Assembly: GCF_000427445.1 (NCBI RefSeq) | Contig: NZ_KE386496.1 | Span: forward strand, 1,601,585 to 1,665,584 | Length of the DNA: 64,000 bases | Direction: 5' to 3' | Source of the DNA: Methylocapsa acidiphila B2 | Lineage (GTDB): Bacteria > Pseudomonadota > Alphaproteobacteria > Rhizobiales > Beijerinckiaceae | In this document: piece by piece, positions 31,914 to 40,725 of the stretch | Layout: every line of letters begins with the position of its first letter | Numbering within the stretch: position 1 is the first letter of the stretch | Position numbers and translations under genes: made by a program | The notes under the pieces: model-generated | Databases searched by the model: none | What the model saw: the letters and a program-made list of their open reading frames with translations, nothing else | What the model was told of the DNA's origin: nothing

Positions 31914-32870
31914 TCACGCCGCGGCAAGCAGCCTTTTCGACACCAATTCTCGCAGCCCCTGGAGGTCGCGGGCGAAAATCCGGATGCCCTCGGACAGCTT
32001 CTCGGTCGCCATCGCGTCCTCGTTGAGGATAAAGCGGAAGGTCTTTTCGTCGAGCGACAGACGCGCCGGCGGATGCGCGGCTGCAGTCTGCGGATCAAGC
32101 CGGCGCGGCAGATCGCCGGTGCTTTTAGCGAGTTCGTCGAGCAATTGCGGCGAGATGGTCAAGCGATCGCAGCCCGCGAGCGCCTCGATTTCGCCAATGT
32201 TGCGGAAGGACGCGCCCATGACCACGGTCTGCATGCCATAGGCTTTGTAATAATTGTAGATTTGCCGCACCGAGAGCACGCCCGGATCGGTTTCCGCCGT
32301 ATAGGTCTTGCCTTCATTCTTGACGTGCCAATCGAGAATTCGTCCGACAAAGGGCGAGACCAGATAGGCCCCGGCGTCCGCGCAGGCCACGGCTTGGACC
32401 AGCGAGAAGATCAAGGTCATATTGCAGTCGATTCCCTCGGCCTGCAGGATCTTCGCGGCCTTGGCGCCCTCCCAAGTGGCCGCGATCTTGATGAGGATGC
32501 GGTCACGCCAGACGCCGCGCTTTTCATAGGCCGCGATAATGGCGCGGGCCTTAGCGATCGTGCCCTCAACGTCGAAGGAGAGATCGGCGTCGACCTCGGT
32601 CGAGACCCGTCCGGGCACGATCCTGGTCAATTCCTCGCCGAAATTGATCACCAGCCGGTCGGCGATCTCGCTCGCCATGCGGTTATGGCTCTGCCCCCAG
32701 AGGATCGCCTCTTCCACCAGGCTCGCATAGGCCGGCAATTGGGCGGCCTTGAGGATCAGGCTGGGGTTTGTGGTCGCATCGACCGGCGAGAAAGCGCGAA
32801 TCGATTCGATGTCGCCGGTATCGGCGACGATCGTCGTCATGGTTTTCAATTGGTCAAGCTTGGAGAGCAT
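31914..32870 (-). CDS. tal: Transaldolase (TalB type)
   Basis: The 318-residue protein is a full-length classical transaldolase. It begins MLSKLDQLKTMTTIVADTGDIESIRAFSPVDATTNPSLILKAA, carries RILIKIAATWEGAKAA with the Schiff-base Lys, CNMTLIFSLVQAVACADAGAYLVSPFVGRILDW and VMGASFRNIGEIEALAGCDRLTISPQLL. It transfers a three-carbon unit between sugar phosphates in the pentose phosphate pathway, and in methylotrophs it can also serve ribulose monophosphate or related cycles. Confidence 0.96.
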   Translation of the reverse strand: MLSKLDQLKTMTTIVADTGDIESIRAFSPVDATTNPSLILKAAQLPAYASLVEEAILWGQSHNRMASEIADRLVINFGEELTRIVPGRVSTEVDADLSFDVEGTIAKARAIIAAYEKRGVWRDRILIKIAATWEGAKAAKILQAEGIDCNMTLIFSLVQAVACADAGAYLVSPFVGRILDWHVKNEGKTYTAETDPGVLSVRQIYNYYKAYGMQTVVMGASFRNIGEIEALAGCDRLTISPQLLDELAKSTGDLPRRLDPQTAAAHPPARLSLDEKTFRFILNEDAMATEKLSEGIRIFARDLQGLRELVSKRLLAAA

Positions 32871-33076
32871 GGCGGGATCCGCTTGAAATAAAGACGGGCT
32901 CTGGGAGGACGAAGATCTCTCCGCACCCCCACCATAGAAAGCAAACGCCTAGAGCCACGTTCGATTTGGCTTTGCAATTCAACGCATAGGCCGGGACATT
33001 GTTTCCGCGATCGAGAGTCGGCGGCCAATCGCCCCGTCAGGAGCGAGGCAATCGGCCTTCTCGGGCAAACCGCGCG

Positions 33077-33493
33077 CTACCGGATCAAGCGAAGCAGAGC
33101 CAGCCCGGCTTTGGTGCGCAGCTCCTTTGCGTCAAGCGTGCCGTCATTGTCGACATCTGCCGATTTGAAGAGCTTTTCGACGATCGCGAGATATTCATCC
33201 TTGGACAAGGTTCCATCATTGTCCGGATCGCCCGCCTTGAAGGCGCCTTTGCTCAACCGCCCGCCGACTTCCTTCGGATCGAGCGTATCGTCGCTGTCCT
33301 TGTTCAGCTTGTCGAAATAATCGGCCGCTGCAACCTTGACCTCAGCAAGATCGAGCGTGCCGTCATGATCCTTGTCCAACGCGGCGATCGCGCTCGAGGC
33401 CAAGGCAGCGCTTGCGCCGGACGAGAAAGCTACTGTCGCGGCCAGGACTCCGCAGAAACCGATTTTGCTGACTAAGAAACGGCGATCGATCAC
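33077..33493 (-). CDS. Lanmodulin-like EF-hand protein, exported
   Basis: The 138-residue protein has a signal peptide with a Tat-like DRRFLVSK and cleavage near GASA (29). Four EF-hand loops follow at 40-51, 64-75, 89-100 and 113-124: DKDHDGTLDLAE, NKDSDDTLDPKE, DPDNDGTLSKDE, DVDNDGTLDAKE. The loops are separated by 12, 13 and 12 residues, far shorter than in calmodulin but the spacing I recall for lanmodulin. Surrounding residues (FDKL, YLAIVE, C-terminal LIR) also match. Lanmodulin is a periplasmic protein that binds lanthanides very tightly. Pro at loop position 2 is kept only in loop 3. GTG 33493 has GGGAG upstream, with ATG 33511 as an alternative. It follows tonB by 150 bases on the same strand. 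Confidence 0.8.
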   Translation of the reverse strand: MIDRRFLVSKIGFCGVLAATVAFSSGASAALASSAIAALDKDHDGTLDLAEVKVAAADYFDKLNKDSDDTLDPKEVGGRLSKGAFKAGDPDNDGTLSKDEYLAIVEKLFKSADVDNDGTLDAKELRTKAGLALLRLIR

Positions 33494-33601
33494 GATATTT
33501 TGCTCCCGCATCACGGGCAAAGCCCTGCCGGCTCGCGCATCATGTGCAACGAGCAGACGACATGCTCGCGCATTTAGCCCCAAAAGTCACGTCTTCCACA
33601 C

Positions 33602-33639
33602 TGGCCGCTGCGCATTCCGATGCTTCCGAGCAGCGGCCA
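33602..33639 (-). terminator. Hairpin between tonB and the lanmodulin-like gene
   Basis: TGGCCGCTGC (33602-33611) and GCAGCGGCCA (33630-33639) are a perfect 10-bp inverted repeat around 18 bases, starting five bases after the tonB stop. Only ACTTTTGG follows, so it would be a weak or partial terminator, or an mRNA-stabilising stem. Confidence 0.5.
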
Positions 33640-33643
33640 TGTT

Positions 33644-34405
33644 CTAGGGGTGGAAATTAATCGCGATGGTCACGCCGTTTGGACCCTGCGGCGGCGGAGG
33701 CGGAAAAGAGCCGGCGCTTCGAACCATGCCCAGAGCCGCCTGATCGAGCGACGCCGAGCCGGAACTCCTGGAGATCCGCGCCCCGTAAGGTGCGCCCGAC
33801 GGGCTAACTGAAAACGACAGTCCGACGACCCCGCTTACGCCCATTCCGCCCGGCTTGTGCCGAACCAATATGGCGCGAACTTGGCTGCCCCATTGCGAGC
33901 TCGACATGCTCGAGCCGGCGTTGCCTTGCCGCGCCGCGGACGCCGCCTGCGTGGCGCCGGAACGAACCGGCGCAGTCGTGCGGGGCGCGGGCGGCTCATG
34001 CGTCTGCTTCACGACAGGCTTTGGCGTGACGGTCTCGACTTTTTTAGGCTTCGGCTTCGGCTTGGGTTTCGGAGCCGCCACCAGAACGGCCTCAGGCTTA
34101 GGCGCGGGAGCGAGATCGGGAACCGTGATCGTCTCGGGCGGCTCGACCTCTTCCGGCGTCGCTTCGGTCATTTGCGGACCCGGAGCGACGTCCATGGTGG
34201 TCTCAGCCGGCGCGGTCGCCTCCAGCGGAGCGAGCTCGATCATCACGGCCGGAGCCGTCGACGCGGAATCGTCGGCGGCCGGCCGACGCGTCAGCCAAAA
34301 GACGAAACTCGCGTGCAGGACGAGGATGAGAAAAGCCGCGCCGATCCACGCCAGCACGGAGCGGTCTTCGCCATGATGAAGAACCGCGGCTGCGTGGCCC
34401 CTCAA
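33644..34405 (-). CDS. tonB: Energy transducer TonB
   Basis: The 253-residue protein has one N-terminal membrane helix (VLAWIGAAFLILVLHASFVFWL) and a long Pro-rich periplasmic spacer with KPKPKPKPKK. The C-terminal TonB domain has VRAILVRHKPGGMGVSGVVGLSFSVSPSGAPYGARISRSSGSASLDQAALGMVRSAGSFPPPP and ends VTIAINFHP. TonB passes proton-motive energy from ExbB/ExbD to outer-membrane receptors. It starts with TTG overlapping the exbD stop, so the two are coupled. The receptor at 38371 is the likely client. Confidence 0.93.
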   Translation of the reverse strand: MRGHAAAVLHHGEDRSVLAWIGAAFLILVLHASFVFWLTRRPAADDSASTAPAVMIELAPLEATAPAETTMDVAPGPQMTEATPEEVEPPETITVPDLAPAPKPEAVLVAAPKPKPKPKPKKVETVTPKPVVKQTHEPPAPRTTAPVRSGATQAASAARQGNAGSSMSSSQWGSQVRAILVRHKPGGMGVSGVVGLSFSVSPSGAPYGARISRSSGSASLDQAALGMVRSAGSFPPPPPQGPNGVTIAINFHP

Positions 34406-34902
34406 GGCTTTGCTTCCGGCGTTGGAGCGCTCTGGGTCTGCGGCTGCCCAGATCCCTGACTTGGCGAGCCCGACGGCGCGGTCCCTCCGGCCCCCTCCAG
34501 ACCGACCAGGCCGATCTTCAAATAGCCGGCGGCGCGCAAGAGATTCATCGTGTCCATGATGTCCCCGTAGGAGACGACCTTGTCGGCGCGAACGAAAACG
34601 CGCTGCTCCCGGTCGAACCCGGTCGCGGCGTCGAGCGCGGCGGCGAGACCGTCGCGCGCGACCGGGTCTTCGCCGAGGGCGAGGGCAAGGTCTGATTTCA
34701 CGGTGAGGAAAAGGGGCTTGTCCGGCCGCGGCGCCGGCTGCGCCGTGGAAGCCGGAAGATCGACATTGACGTCGACGGTCGACAAAGGCGCGGCGACCAT
34801 GAAAATGATGAGCAGGACGAGGATGACGTCGATAAAGGGCGTGACATTGATCTCGTGAGTCTCCTCGAGATCATCGTCACCTGAGACGAGGCGAACGGCC
34901 AT
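34402..34902 (-). CDS. exbD: Biopolymer transport protein ExbD
   Basis: The 166-residue protein has ETHEINVTPFIDVILVLLIIFMVAAPLSTVDVNVDLP, the ExbD membrane helix with its essential proton-carrying Asp. A periplasmic domain follows with PLFLTVKSDLALALGEDPV and VFVRADKVVSYGDIMDTMNLLRAAGYLKIGLVGLE. The tail is Gln/Ser/Pro-rich. It partners ExbB, encoded six bases upstream, and TonB, whose start overlaps its stop. Confidence 0.95.
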   Translation of the reverse strand: MAVRLVSGDDDLEETHEINVTPFIDVILVLLIIFMVAAPLSTVDVNVDLPASTAQPAPRPDKPLFLTVKSDLALALGEDPVARDGLAAALDAATGFDREQRVFVRADKVVSYGDIMDTMNLLRAAGYLKIGLVGLEGAGGTAPSGSPSQGSGQPQTQSAPTPEAKP

Positions 34903-34908
34903 GCGCTG

Positions 34909-35937
34909 TCACTCCGCGGGTTGGCGTATCGGAACCACCGGCGAATCCTCCTTGCGCCGGGGCTGAGACTCACGGTCAATGTCGCGCGACAGATGGCGAA
35001 GGACTTCCGCCGACGCGTCGGCGAGCTGGGCCCGATAGCCGGTGATCGCACGGGCGAAGACATTGTAGATCACGACCGCCGGGATCGCGGCGAACAATCC
35101 CATCGCCGTGGCCAAGAGCGCCTCGGCGATGCCCGGCGCGACGACGGCGAGATTGGTCGTGTTCGTCTTCGAGATGCCGATGAAGCTGTCCATAATGCCC
35201 CAGACCGTGCCGAAGAGGCCGACGAAGGGAGCGGTCGCGCCGATCGTCGCGAGCACGCCTGTCCCGCGCGTGATGCTTCGGCCGGCGCGCGCCTCGATGC
35301 GCGAGAGCAGCGCGACCGCGCGCTCCTTGACGCCATCCGGCGGAAGTCCCTTGGAGCGGTCAAGCTCGCCCACGGCGGCGGAAACCAAGCGCGCGACAGG
35401 GCCGCGCGTCTCGGCGAATTCCTTTTCGGCTTCCTTGAGGGTCGCCGCATGCGCCAATGTCTCAAGGCCGCTACGCGCCTTTCGCTTCGCGGCCCAGAGC
35501 TCGATGGTTTTAGCGAGCCACACCGTCCATGTCGCCAGCGACGCAAGGGCGAGACCGATCATGACGGCTTTCACGGCCGGAACCGCGCCGCGGAACATGC
35601 CCCAGGGCGTCAAATCGCGCGGGAGCGAAGACGGCAGCGACGCCTCCGCCTTGAGCGCGGGCTTGACCGCCCCCGACGCCGCCTCGGGCGCAGCCGCTTC
35701 GGGCGCAGCCGCTCGAGTCGGAGCCGCTTCTGCATCGGGATGCGGCTCGGAGACGGCCGCAGGCTCGGCGCTAGTCGAGGCCGGAGATTGCGCCTGAGCC
35801 GAGGCGCTGAAGACCGTGAGGGTCACACATAAAAGGGCGAGCGCCGCGGCGACGCTCTGCGCCCCCGAAATCCAAGCCGCGCAAGGACTGCTCCGCCGAG
35901 TTTCCTTGTCCATGAACACGCTCTCCAACCGACTCAT
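34909..35937 (-). CDS. exbB: Biopolymer transport protein ExbB
   Basis: The protein of 342 residues has a signal peptide and a low-complexity Ala/Pro/Glu stretch, common in rhizobial ExbB. Three membrane helices and the MotA/TolQ/ExbB core follow: LARTIELWAAKRKA-like cytoplasmic part, GTGVLATIGATAPFVGLFGTVWGIMDSFIGISKTNTTNLAVVAPGIAEALLATAMGLFAAIPAVVIYNVFAR. It forms the proton channel with ExbD. ATG 35937 has AGAGAGGA eight bases upstream, and ATG 35913 also has a good site. The frame continues upstream towards piuC but that part is not ExbB. Confidence 0.93.
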   Translation of the reverse strand: MSRLESVFMDKETRRSSPCAAWISGAQSVAAALALLCVTLTVFSASAQAQSPASTSAEPAAVSEPHPDAEAAPTRAAAPEAAAPEAASGAVKPALKAEASLPSSLPRDLTPWGMFRGAVPAVKAVMIGLALASLATWTVWLAKTIELWAAKRKARSGLETLAHAATLKEAEKEFAETRGPVARLVSAAVGELDRSKGLPPDGVKERAVALLSRIEARAGRSITRGTGVLATIGATAPFVGLFGTVWGIMDSFIGISKTNTTNLAVVAPGIAEALLATAMGLFAAIPAVVIYNVFARAITGYRAQLADASAEVLRHLSRDIDRESQPRRKEDSPVVPIRQPAE

Positions 35938-36236
35938 ACGGGAATCCTCTCTACGCGCAATTCGAACAATGCTCCCGGCGCAAATGCGGCGGTCCTTCCT
36001 CGGCCAAAGCAATGCCGAGGATGAAATCATAAAAACAGACCCGAACCAAGCGCGAGGATATGCGCCCAAGACGCCATCCAGCTCGTTCATCGCCCAAGTC
36101 TTCTCCGGCCGCGTTTTCGTTTGGTTCCCTGGCCGGCGCCCGAGCTTTTCGATTGCGACATTCGCCAACTCTTCGCGTCTCCACGACGCTTTTGCGCGGC
36201 TTCCATGCGATTGCCGGACGCCGGCGGCTACGAAAT

Positions 36237-36917
36237 TTAGGCTTCGACCCATTGCCTCAGAAGATTGTGATAGATGGACGTTAGCGAAACCAACGTCGGA
36301 TGGCCGGGACCATCGCGGGTCAGCCGAATGATCGCCGCGTCGAGGTCGAAGAGCAGCGCGCGGCGCGCGCGATCGCGGACGAGGCTCTGCACCCAGAAGA
36401 AAGAGGCGAGCCGCGCGCCGCGCGTGACCGGCGCCACATAATGCAGGCTATCGGACGGATAAACCACGAGATCCCCCGCCGGAAGCTTGACGCTATGGCT
36501 GCCGTAAGTGTCCTCGACCGTCAGTTCGCCGCCGTCATACTCCTCGGGACCGCTCAAGAAAAGCGTAGCCGACACGTCGGTGCGAATGCGGATCGAGCCG
36601 TCCATGGTTTGACGCACCGCGTTGTCGACATGCGCGCCGAACGCCATCCCTTCATCATATCGATTGAACAAAGGCGGAAAAATCGTATGCGGCAGAACCG
36701 CGGAGATGAACAACGGGCTGCGTTGCAGCGCCCGGATCACCATGTTCCCGAGGTCGCGATGCTCGGCGCCGCCCTCGGGCAATTGCAAATTGTTTTTGAC
36801 CTGCGCCGACTGATGGCCCGCCGTGGCGCGCCCGTCGACCCACGCGGCCGCCTGCATGGCGGCCCGGCATAGCGCGAGCTGATCTTGGTCGAGAACTTCT
36901 GGAATATGCACCATCAT
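36237..36917 (-). CDS. piuC: PKHD-type Fe(II)/2-oxoglutarate hydroxylase (PiuC/YbiX)
   Basis: The 226-residue protein is the exact family length and begins [21 protein letters not shown]. Iron ligands are His and Asp in [11 protein letters not shown] and His in [30 protein letters not shown], where the Arg after it binds 2-oxoglutarate. PiuC/YbiX genes accompany catecholate siderophore receptors (PiuA/Fiu), and their substrate is still unclear. ATG 36917 overlaps the PepSY gene stop as ATGA, so the two are translated together. Confidence 0.92.
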
Positions 36918-38149
36918 TGGGATTTCAACGTATGAGCGCGTGACCGCACGACATCGGAAACGCAAAAAAAGGAAAATTCTGCTCGCTTCCGGCGCGACGC
37001 CGGCGCGGCCGGGAATGGACGTCCGCTCGCGCGGAGCCTGCCCGCCGACCTTCTCGCAGAGCGGCGGCGCAGCCACATCATGACGCCGGTGACGAGAAAA
37101 ATCGCTGGAGCCAACCCGCAAAGGACCCCTATTGCGCGCCAGATCGGCCCATGATGGCTCGCCTCATGGATCTGGCGCAGCCAGACGGCGACTCCGTCTC
37201 CTCGCGTCGGCGGCGGCTCGACCTTCACGGCCGAAGTCGCGTCGTCGACCGTCACGACGCGCAACGCATCCTCCGCGTCGCTCAGTTGAACCCGCCAAAG
37301 CCCATCCTGCTCCGTAGGCGAAACCAAAGCCGTCGGGCGCAAGCTGGACCCTGTTTGCAACGCCAAGGCGACGACCCGGTCCGGGTCCAAAATCGGTCGC
37401 CGCAGCAACGCAGCCGCCGGGCCTTGGCGCATCGGACGCGGAGATAGTTCAGAGAAAGCCGCGATCAAAGCCCGCCCCTGCTGCGGAAATCCGAGATAAG
37501 CGCCGGTCAAGGCCATCAAGCCCAAGGGTAAAGCGATCCAACCGCCCAGCACATAATGGAGATTGACGCTCACTTTTGCGCCGCGCCGCCACCATAGCGC
37601 CTGGAGGAATCGCCGGCTTGCCGGCCACCACAGCTTGAGACCCGTCACAGCCAGCGTCAGAAGCCCAACGCCGATGAAGCCTACGATCTGCCGACCCGAA
37701 AGATTTGGCAGCATCAGATCCCCATGGAGCGAATGCGCGCGGCCGATGAAAGAGGCGCGCGCGTCGACGACGCCGAGCGCGCGCCCGGTCGGCGGATCGA
37801 GATAAGCCATGCGCAAGGACGCCCCCGACGCGGTCCGCTTTTCGCCCTCGCCGCTCCGCAGGAAAACAATGATTGGCGCCCCGCTCGTCGCCGGCCAGCG
37901 CAGCGTGGCGGCGCGCCCGCCGGGCGCCGCCAATTCCGCATTGGCGAGATAGACGTCGATCCCCTGCCCGATGGCCGGCCCGCTCACCGCGTAGCGCGCC
38001 GGGTCGAGCAGGCGATCAATATCCTCGCCGAACACGAGCAACACGCCTGAAAAACAAATCGGAACGATCAACGCGCCGGCGCCAAGCCCAATCCAGAGAT
38101 GAATTCGGCGCCAGAGCGACCGGCGGTTGGGGGATGCGAGAGGGTCCAT
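36914..38149 (-). CDS. PepSY-associated membrane protein (PiuB-like)
   Basis: The 411-residue protein has four main membrane helices and PepSY domains. It starts [40 protein letters not shown], then [65 protein letters not shown], and [28 protein letters not shown]. Histidines at helix ends fit haem or metal binding. PiuB/FsqB-type members are thought to reduce ferric siderophores in the periplasm. ATG 38149 is used. It is divergent from the receptor gene and coupled to piuC. Confidence 0.88.
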
Positions 38150-38242
38150 ATCTGCCCAATACACGACTGCCAAAAAATCAACGACTACATGCGCCGTCGA
38201 CGTTCCATATATACGGAGCACAAAAAAAGCAATATAATTTAG

Positions 38243-38259
38243 TTTAGAACTATTACAAT
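38243..38259. promoter_or_regulatory. Weak Irr-box-like site in front of the piuB-like gene
   Basis: TTTAGAA at 38243-38249 is a perfect half-site of the Irr iron-control box. The second half (TTACAAT after 3 bases) matches poorly. It lies about 95 bases upstream of the PepSY gene start and could give Irr a hold on that promoter. Confidence 0.35.
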
Positions 38260-38297
38260 TTTAATAGATACACAGTATATTGTGACTAGTACGAGAT

Positions 38298-38313
38298 ATA
38301 TGCTACAGCATAT
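38298..38313. promoter_or_regulatory. 16-bp palindrome in the receptor promoter
   Basis: ATATGCT-AC-AGCATAT has perfect 7-bp arms. It lies 58 bases before the receptor start, within AT-rich divergent promoter DNA, next to the Irr-like box. Confidence 0.45.
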
Positions 38314-38321
38314 TACGATAT

Positions 38322-38348
38322 TATACTTTAGAATGCGTCTAAAGTATA
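38322..38348. promoter_or_regulatory. Irr/ICE-type iron control box
   Basis: An 11-bp perfect inverted repeat around ATGCG contains TTTAGAATGCGTCTAAA (38327-38343). It matches 13 of 14 fixed positions of the Irr box TTTAGAA-N3-TTCTAAA known from Bradyrhizobium and relatives. It sits 22 bases before the receptor start. Irr controls iron-uptake genes according to haem status in Hyphomicrobiales. Confidence 0.75.
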
Positions 38349-38370
38349 AATTATTACGGGGGATTACGTT

Positions 38371-40725
38371 ATGTCGCAGGACTTGACCCGAGACATATTT
38401 GGATACCATCGCGATAATTCGAACAATTCGAGTTCGAATTTCATTCGCGCAACGGCGCGGACTCCGCTGACGCGGGCTGCAATCGGCCTCGCTTCCGTCA
38501 TGCTCGGCGGCGCCGCATTGGCGCAGGAAAGCGGCGAGGTCGCGCTCGAGCAAATCGACGTCGCCGGTTCCGACGGGGGCCAGCAAGGCAGCGATTTCAA
38601 TCCGCGCAAGCTCGGACTCACGCGATTGCCGACGCCTATTCTCGACACGCCGCAAAGCATCACTGTCGTCCCGCAGAAGCTGATCCAGGACCAGAACGAT
38701 TCAACGGTCGTCGAAGCGCTTCACAACGTGCCAGGCATCACATTTTTCGGCGGTGAAGGAGGCACCCAGGGCGACAATATCGCCATCCATGGCTATTCGG
38801 CCCGCAATGACTTTTATCGCGACGGCGTGCGCGATCCCGGCTGGTACACGCGAGACACGTTCAGCGTGCAGCAGATCGAAGTGCTCAAGGGCCCGTCGTC
38901 CTTCCTGTTCGGACGGGGCTCGACCGGCGGCGTCGTCAACATGACCAGCAAATTGCCGGTCTTCGCCGATTTCACCACGTTGGAAATGTCCGGCTACACG
39001 GCCCCCGGGGGCCGCGTTGTCGCCGACGTCAATCGAACCTTCGGAGACACCGCGGCCCGCATCATTCTTCTCGGCAACGACACCAATGTCGCCGACCGCG
39101 ACAACATCGTCACCAAGCGCGTCGGCGTCGCGCCGTCGATCTCGATACACATGACGCCCGATACGCGGGGCACGCTCAGCTATATTTTTCAAAAGGACGA
39201 CAATATCCCCGACTATGGCATCCCTCTCCTGCCCGGGTCCTATTTCGGCACGTCCTACGGCCAGCCGGCGCCGGTTTCGAAAAATACCTATTACGGACGG
39301 CTTACGAGTGGCTTCTCGGACACCGAGCAGGTCAACGCGCATATCGTCACCGCGCGAATCGAGCATGATTTCAACGCGCAATGGCAAGCCACGAATGTGA
39401 CGCGCTATTCCAATATCGATCGCTTCGTCAGAATTCGCGGCGTTCAGATCGGCAACCAGTCGGTCGGCTCCACGCCGAACATCTATAACGCCCCGGTCGG
39501 CGGCGCCTTGCTCAATCCGGTTCCATATCAATATCCAGTCGCCGACTTATGGGTCGCCAATAAGAATGATTTCCAAAATCACACGCAGAATTCTCTTCTG
39601 ACCAACCAATCTGATCTAGTTGGTCATTTCGACACTGGACTGCTGCAGCATACGCTCCTCGCAGGTCTCGAGCTGTCGCAAGAGACCCGCGACCAATACA
39701 GGACGACTTTGGTCCCTGGCGACCGCGTCAACGTAGGCGATCCCGATCCCTATCCCGCCAACCCAGGCTCGCTGCCGGCGTTGAGCACCGACCAATATGA
39801 TCTCGGGCGCACCATCGGCGTCTACGCAAGCGACCAGGTCAAGATCACCAAATATTTCGAGGTTCTCGGCGGTCTGCGCTATGACCTTTTCAAGATCTGG
39901 CAAAACTACGGCAACGTGTACACCGGAACAAAAATTTACGCGTCCCAGATCAATTCCTCGACGCCCTATAACATGAGCTCCAACACCGAATTCCTGAGCT
40001 GGCGCTCCGGCGGCGTGTTTCACCCGATCGAAAACGCCAGCATCTATTTCGTGTATGGCACATCGTTCGATCCTTCGAGCGAGTTCCTGACGCTCGCCGG
40101 AGGCCAGCAGAATTTCGAGCCGACGACGAACCAGAATTACGAATTCGGCGCCAAGATCGACCTGCTCGACAGCAAGCTGAGCTTGACCGGCGCGCTGTTC
40201 GAAGTCATCCAGAACAATGCGATCGAGACAATCAATTCGGCGGCGGGCCTCTATGCGCAGATCGGCAAGACGCGCGTCGAGGGCGGCGAAATCGGCATCG
40301 CCGGCAAGGTGACGGACGCTTGGAGCATTTTCGGCGGCTACACCTATATGGACGGCCGCGTGCTCGCGAGCGCCGTGAACAATTCAACCGGCGCCTTCAT
40401 CAGCCAGCCGGGCAACCAGCTCGCGAACGTCCCCCACAACACTTTCGCGCTGACCAACACCTATGCGATCACGCCGGCCTTGACCGTCGGGGCCAGCGCA
40501 TATTATGTCGGCGCGCGCTACACCACCGCCGCCGACATAGGCCGCGTTCCTGGTTATTGGCGCTTCGATCTCCTTGGAACCTATAAGATCGACGCCAATT
40601 TCTCCCTGCAAGCGAATATCTATAATATCGCCGACACGAAGAATTTCGAGACGATCTCTGGCTACGGCTCCGCGACCCCAGGGCCTGGTCGATCCGCTGT
40701 CTTGACCGCGAAAATGAGCTTTTGA
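38371..40725 (+). CDS. TonB-dependent siderophore receptor (PiuA/Fiu/FhuE-like)
   Basis: The 784-residue protein has a signal peptide ending ALAQ near residue 52, after a long N-terminal extension. A candidate TonB box lies in ALEQIDVAG. The plug has DTPQSITVVPQKLIQDQNDSTVVEALHNVPGITF and QQIEVLKGPSSFLFGRGSTGGVVNMTSK. A 22-strand barrel ends LTAKMSF with the terminal Phe used by the Bam machine. No N-terminal signalling (STN) domain is present. Family and neighbours (piuB-like, piuC, Irr box) indicate uptake of a ferric siderophore, and the nearby lanmodulin-like gene leaves a lanthanide-chelate open. Confidence 0.9.
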   Translation: MSQDLTRDIFGYHRDNSNNSSSNFIRATARTPLTRAAIGLASVMLGGAALAQESGEVALEQIDVAGSDGGQQGSDFNPRKLGLTRLPTPILDTPQSITVVPQKLIQDQNDSTVVEALHNVPGITFFGGEGGTQGDNIAIHGYSARNDFYRDGVRDPGWYTRDTFSVQQIEVLKGPSSFLFGRGSTGGVVNMTSKLPVFADFTTLEMSGYTAPGGRVVADVNRTFGDTAARIILLGNDTNVADRDNIVTKRVGVAPSISIHMTPDTRGTLSYIFQKDDNIPDYGIPLLPGSYFGTSYGQPAPVSKNTYYGRLTSGFSDTEQVNAHIVTARIEHDFNAQWQATNVTRYSNIDRFVRIRGVQIGNQSVGSTPNIYNAPVGGALLNPVPYQYPVADLWVANKNDFQNHTQNSLLTNQSDLVGHFDTGLLQHTLLAGLELSQETRDQYRTTLVPGDRVNVGDPDPYPANPGSLPALSTDQYDLGRTIGVYASDQVKITKYFEVLGGLRYDLFKIWQNYGNVYTGTKIYASQINSSTPYNMSSNTEFLSWRSGGVFHPIENASIYFVYGTSFDPSSEFLTLAGGQQNFEPTTNQNYEFGAKIDLLDSKLSLTGALFEVIQNNAIETINSAAGLYAQIGKTRVEGGEIGIAGKVTDAWSIFGGYTYMDGRVLASAVNNSTGAFISQPGNQLANVPHNTFALTNTYAITPALTVGASAYYVGARYTTAADIGRVPGYWRFDLLGTYKIDANFSLQANIYNIADTKNFETISGYGSATPGPGRSAVLTAKMSF

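What the first reader, a model, noticed from the sequence alone, without database searches (positions are those of the whole stretch)
33077..33493. Lanmodulin-like protein with the diagnostic short spacing between EF-hands
Four 12-residue EF loops are separated by 12, 13 and 12 residues, and the protein ends LLRLIR. Both features match Methylorubrum extorquens lanmodulin as I recall it, whereas calmodulin-type proteins have about 24 residues between loops. A signal peptide is present. A lanthanide-binding periplasmic protein here would be a useful new member of a small family.
Basis: partly seen in the sequence, partly recalled or inferred. Interest (0 to 1): 0.85.

Follow-up and report, generated by a model that had tools for sequence, protein, structure and literature searches.

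The report
Lanmodulin gene in a methane-oxidising bacterium
The gene encodes a genuine lanmodulin, a small protein predicted to bind rare-earth metals outside the inner membrane of a methane-oxidising bacterium; it is a further member of a well-known family, with slightly unusual metal loops and an unusual place beside an energy-coupling (TonB) gene cluster.

Summary
Minus-strand gene 33493..33077 encodes four 12-residue EF loops separated by 12, 13 and 12 residues, ends LLRLIR, and scores 157.9 bits against NCBI's lanmodulin model (cut-off 135). An AlphaFold model matches Nd-bound Methylorubrum extorquens LanM at 0.8 Å. It meets the three published LanM hallmarks, including one proline-2 loop. 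The family is not small: 696 sequences were counted in 2023, and 61 of 199 genomes sampled from the host's family have a clear copy.

Three details go further. (1) In the host's genus lanM usually follows exbB-exbD (8 of 12 other loci) and precedes transaldolase (11 of 12). (2) Its clade has non-canonical loops (EF2 NKDSDDTLDPKE, mostly one Pro2), unlike a second, four-proline LanM in 4 of 15 genomes of the genus. Position in the genome suggests that this second type is the lanthanum-induced Msil_0271 of Methylocella silvestris. (3) The host has a PmoA/AmoA-family protein, an MDH with the lanthanide-type Asp, an MxaF-type MDH and a LutH-like receptor.

Metal binding was not tested. Likely role: periplasmic lanthanide buffer/shuttle.

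The parts
33077..33493 (-). lanM, lanmodulin; GTG start at 33493 (longer in-frame ATG at 33511), 138 aa precursor
   Evidence: NCBIfam NF053806 157.9 bits, cut-off 135; PDB hits 6mi5 and 8fns; predicted fold matches 8fns, rmsd 0.8
33407..33493 (-). probable signal peptide, cleavage guessed after GASA
   Evidence: read by eye; low-confidence region of the model; no signal-peptide predictor available
33341..33376 (-). EF loop 1, DKDHDGTLDLAE (D1 D3 D5 D9 E12; no Pro2)
33269..33304 (-). EF loop 2, NKDSDDTLDPKE (N1 in place of D/E1, D6 in place of G6)
   Evidence: N1 in EF2 in 10 of 116 rows, D6 in 8 of 116 (some genomes appear both named and unnamed in those rows, M. tundrae among the 10 and the 8)
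33194..33229 (-). EF loop 3, DPDNDGTLSKDE (the only Pro2; Ser at position 9)
33122..33157 (-). EF loop 4, DVDNDGTLDAKE (D1, unlike N1 of Mex-LanM EF4)
33644..34405 (-). tonB, directly upstream of lanM
   Evidence: PF03544 TonB_C, TIGR01352
34402..34902 (-). exbD
   Evidence: TIGR02803 201.4 bits, cut-off 152.95
34909..36252 (-). exbB (longest ORF; true start probably internal)
   Evidence: TIGR02797 304.6 bits, cut-off 206.2, matched from residue 216
31914..32870 (-). transaldolase gene, downstream neighbour of lanM, syntenic in the genus
   Evidence: TIGR00874 461.2 bits, cut-off 396.2; 11 of 12 other genus loci

Best explanation
This is a bona fide lanmodulin. The precursor is exported to the periplasm. 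Lanthanide ions brought through the outer membrane by a TonB-dependent receptor (a LutH-like one is encoded elsewhere in the genome) are captured by the carboxylate-rich EF loops, and the mostly unfolded apoprotein closes into the LanM three-helix bundle. The loaded protein then acts as a periplasmic lanthanide buffer and shuttle, limiting free Ln3+ and helping to supply the lanthanide-dependent methanol dehydrogenase (XoxF). Shown here: family membership, predicted fold, and presence in the genome of one MDH with the lanthanide-type Asp, an MxaF-type MDH, a LutH-like receptor and a PmoA/AmoA-family protein. Inferred: export, metal identity, affinity, unfolded apo state, delivery to XoxF. Also inferred: EF1 and EF4 (five acidic ligand positions each) should be the strong sites, and EF2 (N1) and EF3 (S9) weaker.
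For: NCBIfam lanmodulin equivalog above cut-off. PDB best hits are Mex-, Hans- and Ancylobacter LanM at E 1e-29 to 1e-18; best other chain 1e-6, calmodulins about 1e-3. AlphaFold core pLDDT 88-96 by block. Foldseek: only four matches at E <= 0.001, all LanM; TM 0.96 on 8fns, rmsd 0.8; next hit E = 0.01. Published hallmarks met. Host has an MDH with WDYD at C2:2269672, followed by a methanol-type cytochrome and a MoxJ-like gene, and an MDH with WDYA. LutH-like receptor, 44%. PmoA/AmoA family protein, 366 bits. In genome G002 the orthologous lanM lies about 1.4 kb upstream of an MxaF-type MDH gene. Hans-LanM EF1, a loop with the same N1, K2 and D6, is occupied by La in its crystal.
Against: No binding data. 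Only one loop has Pro2, EF2 has N1 and lacks G6, and EF3 lacks D9, so affinity and Ln/Ca selectivity may be below those of Mex-LanM. In Methylobacterium aquaticum 22A LanM was not needed for methanol growth, including that of an XoxF-dependent mutant (PMC9260416 abstract), so delivery to XoxF is not established there. G010 of the same genus has an MDH with the lanthanide-type Asp but no detected LanM. In M. silvestris the Ln-induced LanM appears to be the other type, so I know of no evidence that lanthanides induce this type. The protein and its genus relatives also touch the XopAW calcium-binding model, far below its cut-off (29.5 of 120 bits for the window protein; 17 of 17 members at E <= 0.001).
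Confidence: 0.9

Rival explanations
1. It is a lanmodulin by descent that has drifted towards another job at the TonB complex, for instance buffering Ca2+ or another metal during siderophore-iron uptake, the neighbouring genes being an iron-siderophore uptake set (Fiu-like receptor, PepSY protein, PiuC-type hydroxylase, ExbB-ExbD-TonB).
For: Neighbours 33644-40725 are an iron-uptake-like set, and 8 of 12 other genus loci keep exbB-exbD next to lanM. EF loops are non-canonical across the clade. In G086, of another genus, a receptor-PepSY-PKHD set stands about 0.5 kb before a lanM.
Against: Coordinating acids are kept: in the 13 proteins of the clade EF1 is D1 D3 D5 D9 E12 in 13 of 13, and EF2 keeps D3 D5 D9 E12 in 13 of 13. 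All 17 members of the genus alignment hit the lanmodulin model at E <= 0.001 (cut-off compared only for the window protein). A promoter-like block before lanM in 5 of 12 other loci suggests its own transcription.
Confidence: 0.07
2. An ordinary calcium EF-hand (calmodulin-like) periplasmic protein.
For: Generic EF-hand Pfam families match.
Against: Loop spacing 12/13/12 instead of about 25 residues, LanM HMM above cut-off, best calmodulin listed about 26 orders of magnitude weaker in E-value, Foldseek calmodulins at TM about 0.2 against 0.96 for LanM.
Confidence: 0.02
3. A rival to the novel reading rather than to LanM identity: the exbB-exbD-tonB-lanM-tal order has no functional meaning; lanM simply sits there by descent.
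For: The arrangement was seen within one genus, so it may be one ancestral event. In Methylocystis and relatives lanM sits in the lut cluster instead. A hairpin just after tonB and, in some relatives, a promoter-like block separate the genes. In Beijerinckiaceae RH AL1 exbB/exbD went down with Nd while lanM went up (PMC10848612 passages); its gene order was not examined.
Against: Order kept in 8 of 12 loci although LanM identity falls to 58%. Of the four ExbD/TolR-family genes of the genome only the window's passes a curated ExbD cut-off, so this complex could well power lanthanide uptake.
Confidence: 0.5

Closest known systems
Lanmodulin of Methylorubrum extorquens AM1 (Mex-LanM; PDB 6mi5, 8fns)
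   Same: Four EF loops, 12/13/12 spacers, predicted fold (rmsd 0.8), 59% identity of aligned core, C-terminal LIR
   Different: One Pro2 loop instead of four; EF2 N1/D6; EF3 S9; EF4 has D1 where Mex has N1; gene lies beside exbB-exbD-tonB, not in a lut-type cluster as described for Methylorubrum
Lanmodulin of Hansschlegelia quercus (Hans-LanM; PDB 8dq2)
   Same: Fold; its EF1 loop NKDNDDSLEIAE shares N1, K2 and D6 with EF2 here
   Different: 42% identity in the aligned core; Glu at position 9 in EF1-3; the Arg100-EF3 dimer contact was not examined here
LanM orthologues of Methylocella tundrae (L004) and of the MAG USCa_AHI (L003)
   Same: 64% identity each, both among the same group of rows in the tree; M. 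tundrae shares the receptor-PepSY-PKHD-exbB-exbD-tonB-lanM-tal order
   Different: The USCa_AHI contig (10.5 kb, 2.8 kb upstream of lanM) shows only lanM-tal; loop details differ
Lanthanum-induced LanM Msil_0271 of Methylocella silvestris BL2 (PMC9291206)
   Same: LanM family, same GTDB genus as the host (by the position argument)
   Different: By position in the genome it is the other LanM type: four DPD loops, 12/11/12 spacers, 44% identity to the window protein

Membership tests
Lanmodulin (LanM) | Four EF-hand loops (PMC10232371 section 5) | tested here: met
Lanmodulin (LanM) | Adjacent loops 12-13 residues apart | tested here: met
   12, 13, 12
Lanmodulin (LanM) | Pro at position 2 of at least one loop | tested here: met
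   EF3 DPDNDG only
Lanmodulin (LanM) | Curated family model above cut-off | tested here: met
   NF053806 157.9 bits, cut-off 135
Lanmodulin (LanM) | Three-helix-bundle LanM fold | tested here: met
   Predicted model only: Foldseek TM 0.96 on target, rmsd 0.8 to 8fns
Lanmodulin (LanM) | Under 200 residues and exported | tested here: inconclusive
   138 aa; signal peptide judged by eye only
Lanmodulin (LanM) | Picomolar lanthanide response, strong selectivity over Ca | not testable with these tools
   Needs metal titration
lut-cluster linkage of lanM (not required of a LanM) | lanM next to lutH, lutA, lutB, lutE, lutF | tested here: not met
   Window neighbours are exbB-exbD-tonB and tal; the LutH-like receptor is at C2:133353, 1.5 Mb away, with no LutA/B/E/F match at E <= 1e-6 in the 20 kb around it
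Calmodulin-type Ca EF-hand protein | About 25 residues between loops; calmodulin fold | tested here: not met

The most novel reading that the evidence does not exclude
Methylocella-type methanotrophs carry a separate lanmodulin lineage, genetically tied to the TonB-ExbB-ExbD energy complex. Its binding hierarchy is shifted (EF1/EF4 strong, EF2 with N1/D6 weak) and its task differs from that of the lanthanum-induced, four-proline LanM. It would be a first acceptor of lanthanides, or a metal-sorting protein, at the TonB uptake machinery.
Probability: 0.15. Interest if true: 0.55.

Novelty: new member of a known kind. Interest (0 to 1): 0.32.

Why it matters
LanM variants differ in affinity and in light/heavy rare-earth selectivity (PMC10232371), so natural variants with unusual loops are useful for rare-earth separation. 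For biology, two LanM types in one genus, only one of which is named in the M. silvestris lanthanum study's main text, make the open question of what LanM does in vivo testable by single and double deletion.

Tried and rejected
Chance or mis-called ORF: rejected. Calcium EF-hand protein: disfavoured by spacing, HMM and predicted fold. A second LanM in the host genome: none detected; the only other hit (E = 0.705, C2:497405) lies in an ORF of 183 aa whose letters show no EF loops by eye. Viral relatives: 17 pattern matches, none confirmed. Tat export: the RR motif (VIDRRFLV) occurs in the window and in G001, G005, G006, G007, G008 and G011 but not in G002, G003, G004, G012, G013 and G014, so it is not claimed. 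Whether the lanM-linked TonB complex is the only one: left open. The genome has three further ExbD/TolR-family genes; one passes the TolR cut-off, one is nearest to TolR and one nearest to ExbD_2, the last two below cut-off. Promoter/terminator scan of 32800-33800: no promoter-like site, five terminator-like sites against 1.2 expected, none of them the inverted repeat after tonB. The upstream block was read off the sequences and has no chance control. sMMO search (PF02332) was negative, but no control genome rang either, so it says nothing.

Full report
Observation. The start is most likely the GTG at 33493: GGGAG stands 9 bases upstream, and several relatives start with Met at that column.

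Identity. NCBIfam NF053806 (lanmodulin, equivalog) scores 157.9 bits against a cut-off of 135. In the PDB the four best sequences are two Mex-LanM constructs (about 105 bits each), Hans-LanM (70 bits) and the Ancylobacter lacus protein (70 bits). The next is a radial spoke protein at 1.1e-6, and calmodulins begin at 0.0018 (60 of 105 hits shown). AlphaFold2 with 33 aligned LanMs gave mean pLDDT 81.9, 88-96 by block in the core. Foldseek's only matches at E <= 0.001 are four LanM chains: 8fns (TM 0.96 on target, rmsd 0.8), 8dq2, 8fnr and 6mi5. The three hallmarks in PMC10232371 (section 5 read), namely four EF hands, 12-13 residue separation and at least one Pro2, are all met. A lesser match to the XopAW calcium-binding model is far below its cut-off (29.5 of 120 bits).

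How common it is. In the host's GTDB genus 13 of 15 genomes, the host included, have a LanM, and four of these have two. In the family sample 68 of 199 match at E <= 0.001; 7 of these have only weak matches (E 1e-5 to 1e-3), leaving 61, one of them a fragment at a contig end. In the named species genomes 106 relatives were confirmed and the best 80 kept. PMC10232371 counted 696 LanMs. PMC12482762 (section 11, first of two parts) reports LanM in methanotrophs of Methylocystaceae and Beijerinckiaceae. So the family is not small and its presence in this group is known.

Host. The genome holds a PmoA/AmoA-family protein. It has one MDH with the lanthanide-type Asp (WDYD) followed by a methanol-type cytochrome and a MoxJ-like gene, one MxaF-type MDH (WDYA), and a third PQQ dehydrogenase below the family cut-off. 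A receptor 44% identical to the LutH-like one beside lanM in Methylocystis rosea lies at C2:133353. I gave the lut names to the Methylocystis genes from Pfam domains and recall, with no reference LutH in hand. That an Asp marks lanthanide MDHs is stated in PMC9291206 (passages); the motif letters that I used are recalled. Named closest relatives are Methylocella tundrae and the MAG USCa_AHI, so the host is probably a Methylocella/Methylocapsa-type methanotroph; its species was not determined.

Neighbourhood. Downstream is transaldolase; upstream are tonB, exbD, exbB, then a PiuC-type hydroxylase, a PepSY protein and a divergent siderophore-type receptor. Across 12 other primary loci of the genus, exbB and exbD were found next to lanM in 8, a detectable tonB in 7, transaldolase in 11. 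The exceptions for exbB/exbD are G002, G005, G008 and G011; G005 and G008 lie on short contigs with about 2.8 kb upstream. Among the 80 named loci the full set was seen in M. tundrae only. Elsewhere the order differs. In Methylocystis lanM lies beside lut-type genes. In G002 of the same genus it lies about 1.4 kb before an MxaF-type MDH gene. In G086 of another genus a receptor-PepSY-PKHD set stands about 0.5 kb before a lanM. So a link with TonB-dependent uptake recurs, while the exbB-exbD-tonB arrangement may be a single inherited feature. Against an operon: a 10-bp perfect inverted repeat follows tonB directly (read), and a block TTTACTTT...AAAGATA (AAGGATA in G008) stands before lanM in 5 of 12 other loci; the window has only GACTTTT at -95, as have G003 and G004 nearby (no chance control). 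Of the four ExbD/TolR-family genes in the genome only the window's passes a curated ExbD cut-off, so it may be the main TonB complex; this is not settled.

Two LanM types in the genus. The maximum-likelihood tree of 118 rows (few columns, many unresolved forks) keeps the primary copies and the second copies apart, each as one group when only labelled rows are counted. The label 'TonB-linked' there covers all primary copies, including the four genomes without exbB/exbD seen, with M. tundrae and USCa_AHI entered twice. The smallest well-supported set that holds the window protein has 25 rows, 10 of them unlabelled, so the primary type is not shown to be confined to this genus. The second type has four DPD loops and 12/11/12 spacers in 4 of 4; the primary type has 12/13/12 spacers in 13 of 13, and Pro2 counts of one in 11, two in 1 and none in 1. 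N1 in EF2 occurs in 10 of 116 rows, 9 of them in this clade, and D6 in 8 of 116, all in this clade, M. tundrae counted twice in both. G003 has seven PQQ dehydrogenase loci whose positions follow the seven Msil tags of PMC9291206 at 1,080-1,109 bases per tag. By that scale Msil_0271, the LanM induced 39-fold (methanol) and 26-fold (ethanol) by lanthanum, is the second type at 314 kb (1,160 bases per tag, a little off the line). The primary one at 904 kb would be near tag 828 (my interpolation), and the main text does not mention it (no Msil_08 term; supplements not readable).

Mechanism. From the LanM literature (PMC10232371 sections and passages; PMC9260416 abstract; PMC10848612 passages) the protein should bind Ln3+ in the periplasm with a disorder-to-order change and buffer or shuttle it. 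In M. aquaticum 22A LanM is dispensable for methanol growth, but its loss causes aggregation, membrane damage and periplasmic La deposits, which favours homeostasis over obligatory delivery. Site prediction: EF1 and EF4 keep five acidic ligand positions. EF4 has the Asp that was engineered into Mex-LanM (N108D raised Gd stoichiometry from about 2.2 to 3.8; PMC11561317 passages). EF2 has N1 and D6, as does EF1 of Hans-LanM, which holds La in the crystal. EF3 lacks D9.

Literature. Searches made. None of the listings showed a paper on a TonB-linked LanM type in Methylocella, but I saw only parts of seven papers (PMC10232371, PMC12482762, PMC9291206, PMC10848612, PMC9260416, PMC11561317, PMC8316094), and the library lacks most subscription journals.

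Verdict. A correct and well-reasoned reading of an ordinary but genuine lanmodulin; interest 0.32.

Noticed in passing
33602-33639: Perfect 10-bp inverted repeat (arms 33639-33630 and 33611-33602 on the minus strand) directly after the tonB stop and before lanM, without a T run (read).
   Followed up: partly
L125, L127, L130, L131, L132 upstream of lanM: Block TTTACTTT(N)AAAGATA (AAGGATA in L125) before lanM in 5 of 12 other genus loci; only GACTTTT at -95 in the window. No chance control.
   Followed up: partly
L133:10318-14363: In G002 the orthologous lanM lies about 1.4 kb upstream of an MxaF-type methanol dehydrogenase gene.
   Followed up: partly
L138 and G013:C3:1427922-1449123: The second, four-proline lanM of G013 lies between two PQQ methanol dehydrogenase genes, with a LutH-like receptor (37%) nearby.
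   Followed up: no
L160:3983-9523: In G086, a different genus, siderophore-type receptor, PepSY and PKHD genes stand about 0.5 kb before a lanM.
   Followed up: no
36237-40725: Fiu-like TonB-dependent receptor, PepSY membrane protein and PiuC-type hydroxylase: an iron-siderophore-like uptake set next to exbB-exbD-tonB.
   Followed up: partly
33470-33493: Signal peptide begins VIDRRFLV, a twin-arginine-like motif; shared by six of the 12 other primary genus loci but not by the M. tundrae / M. silvestris branch.
   Followed up: partly
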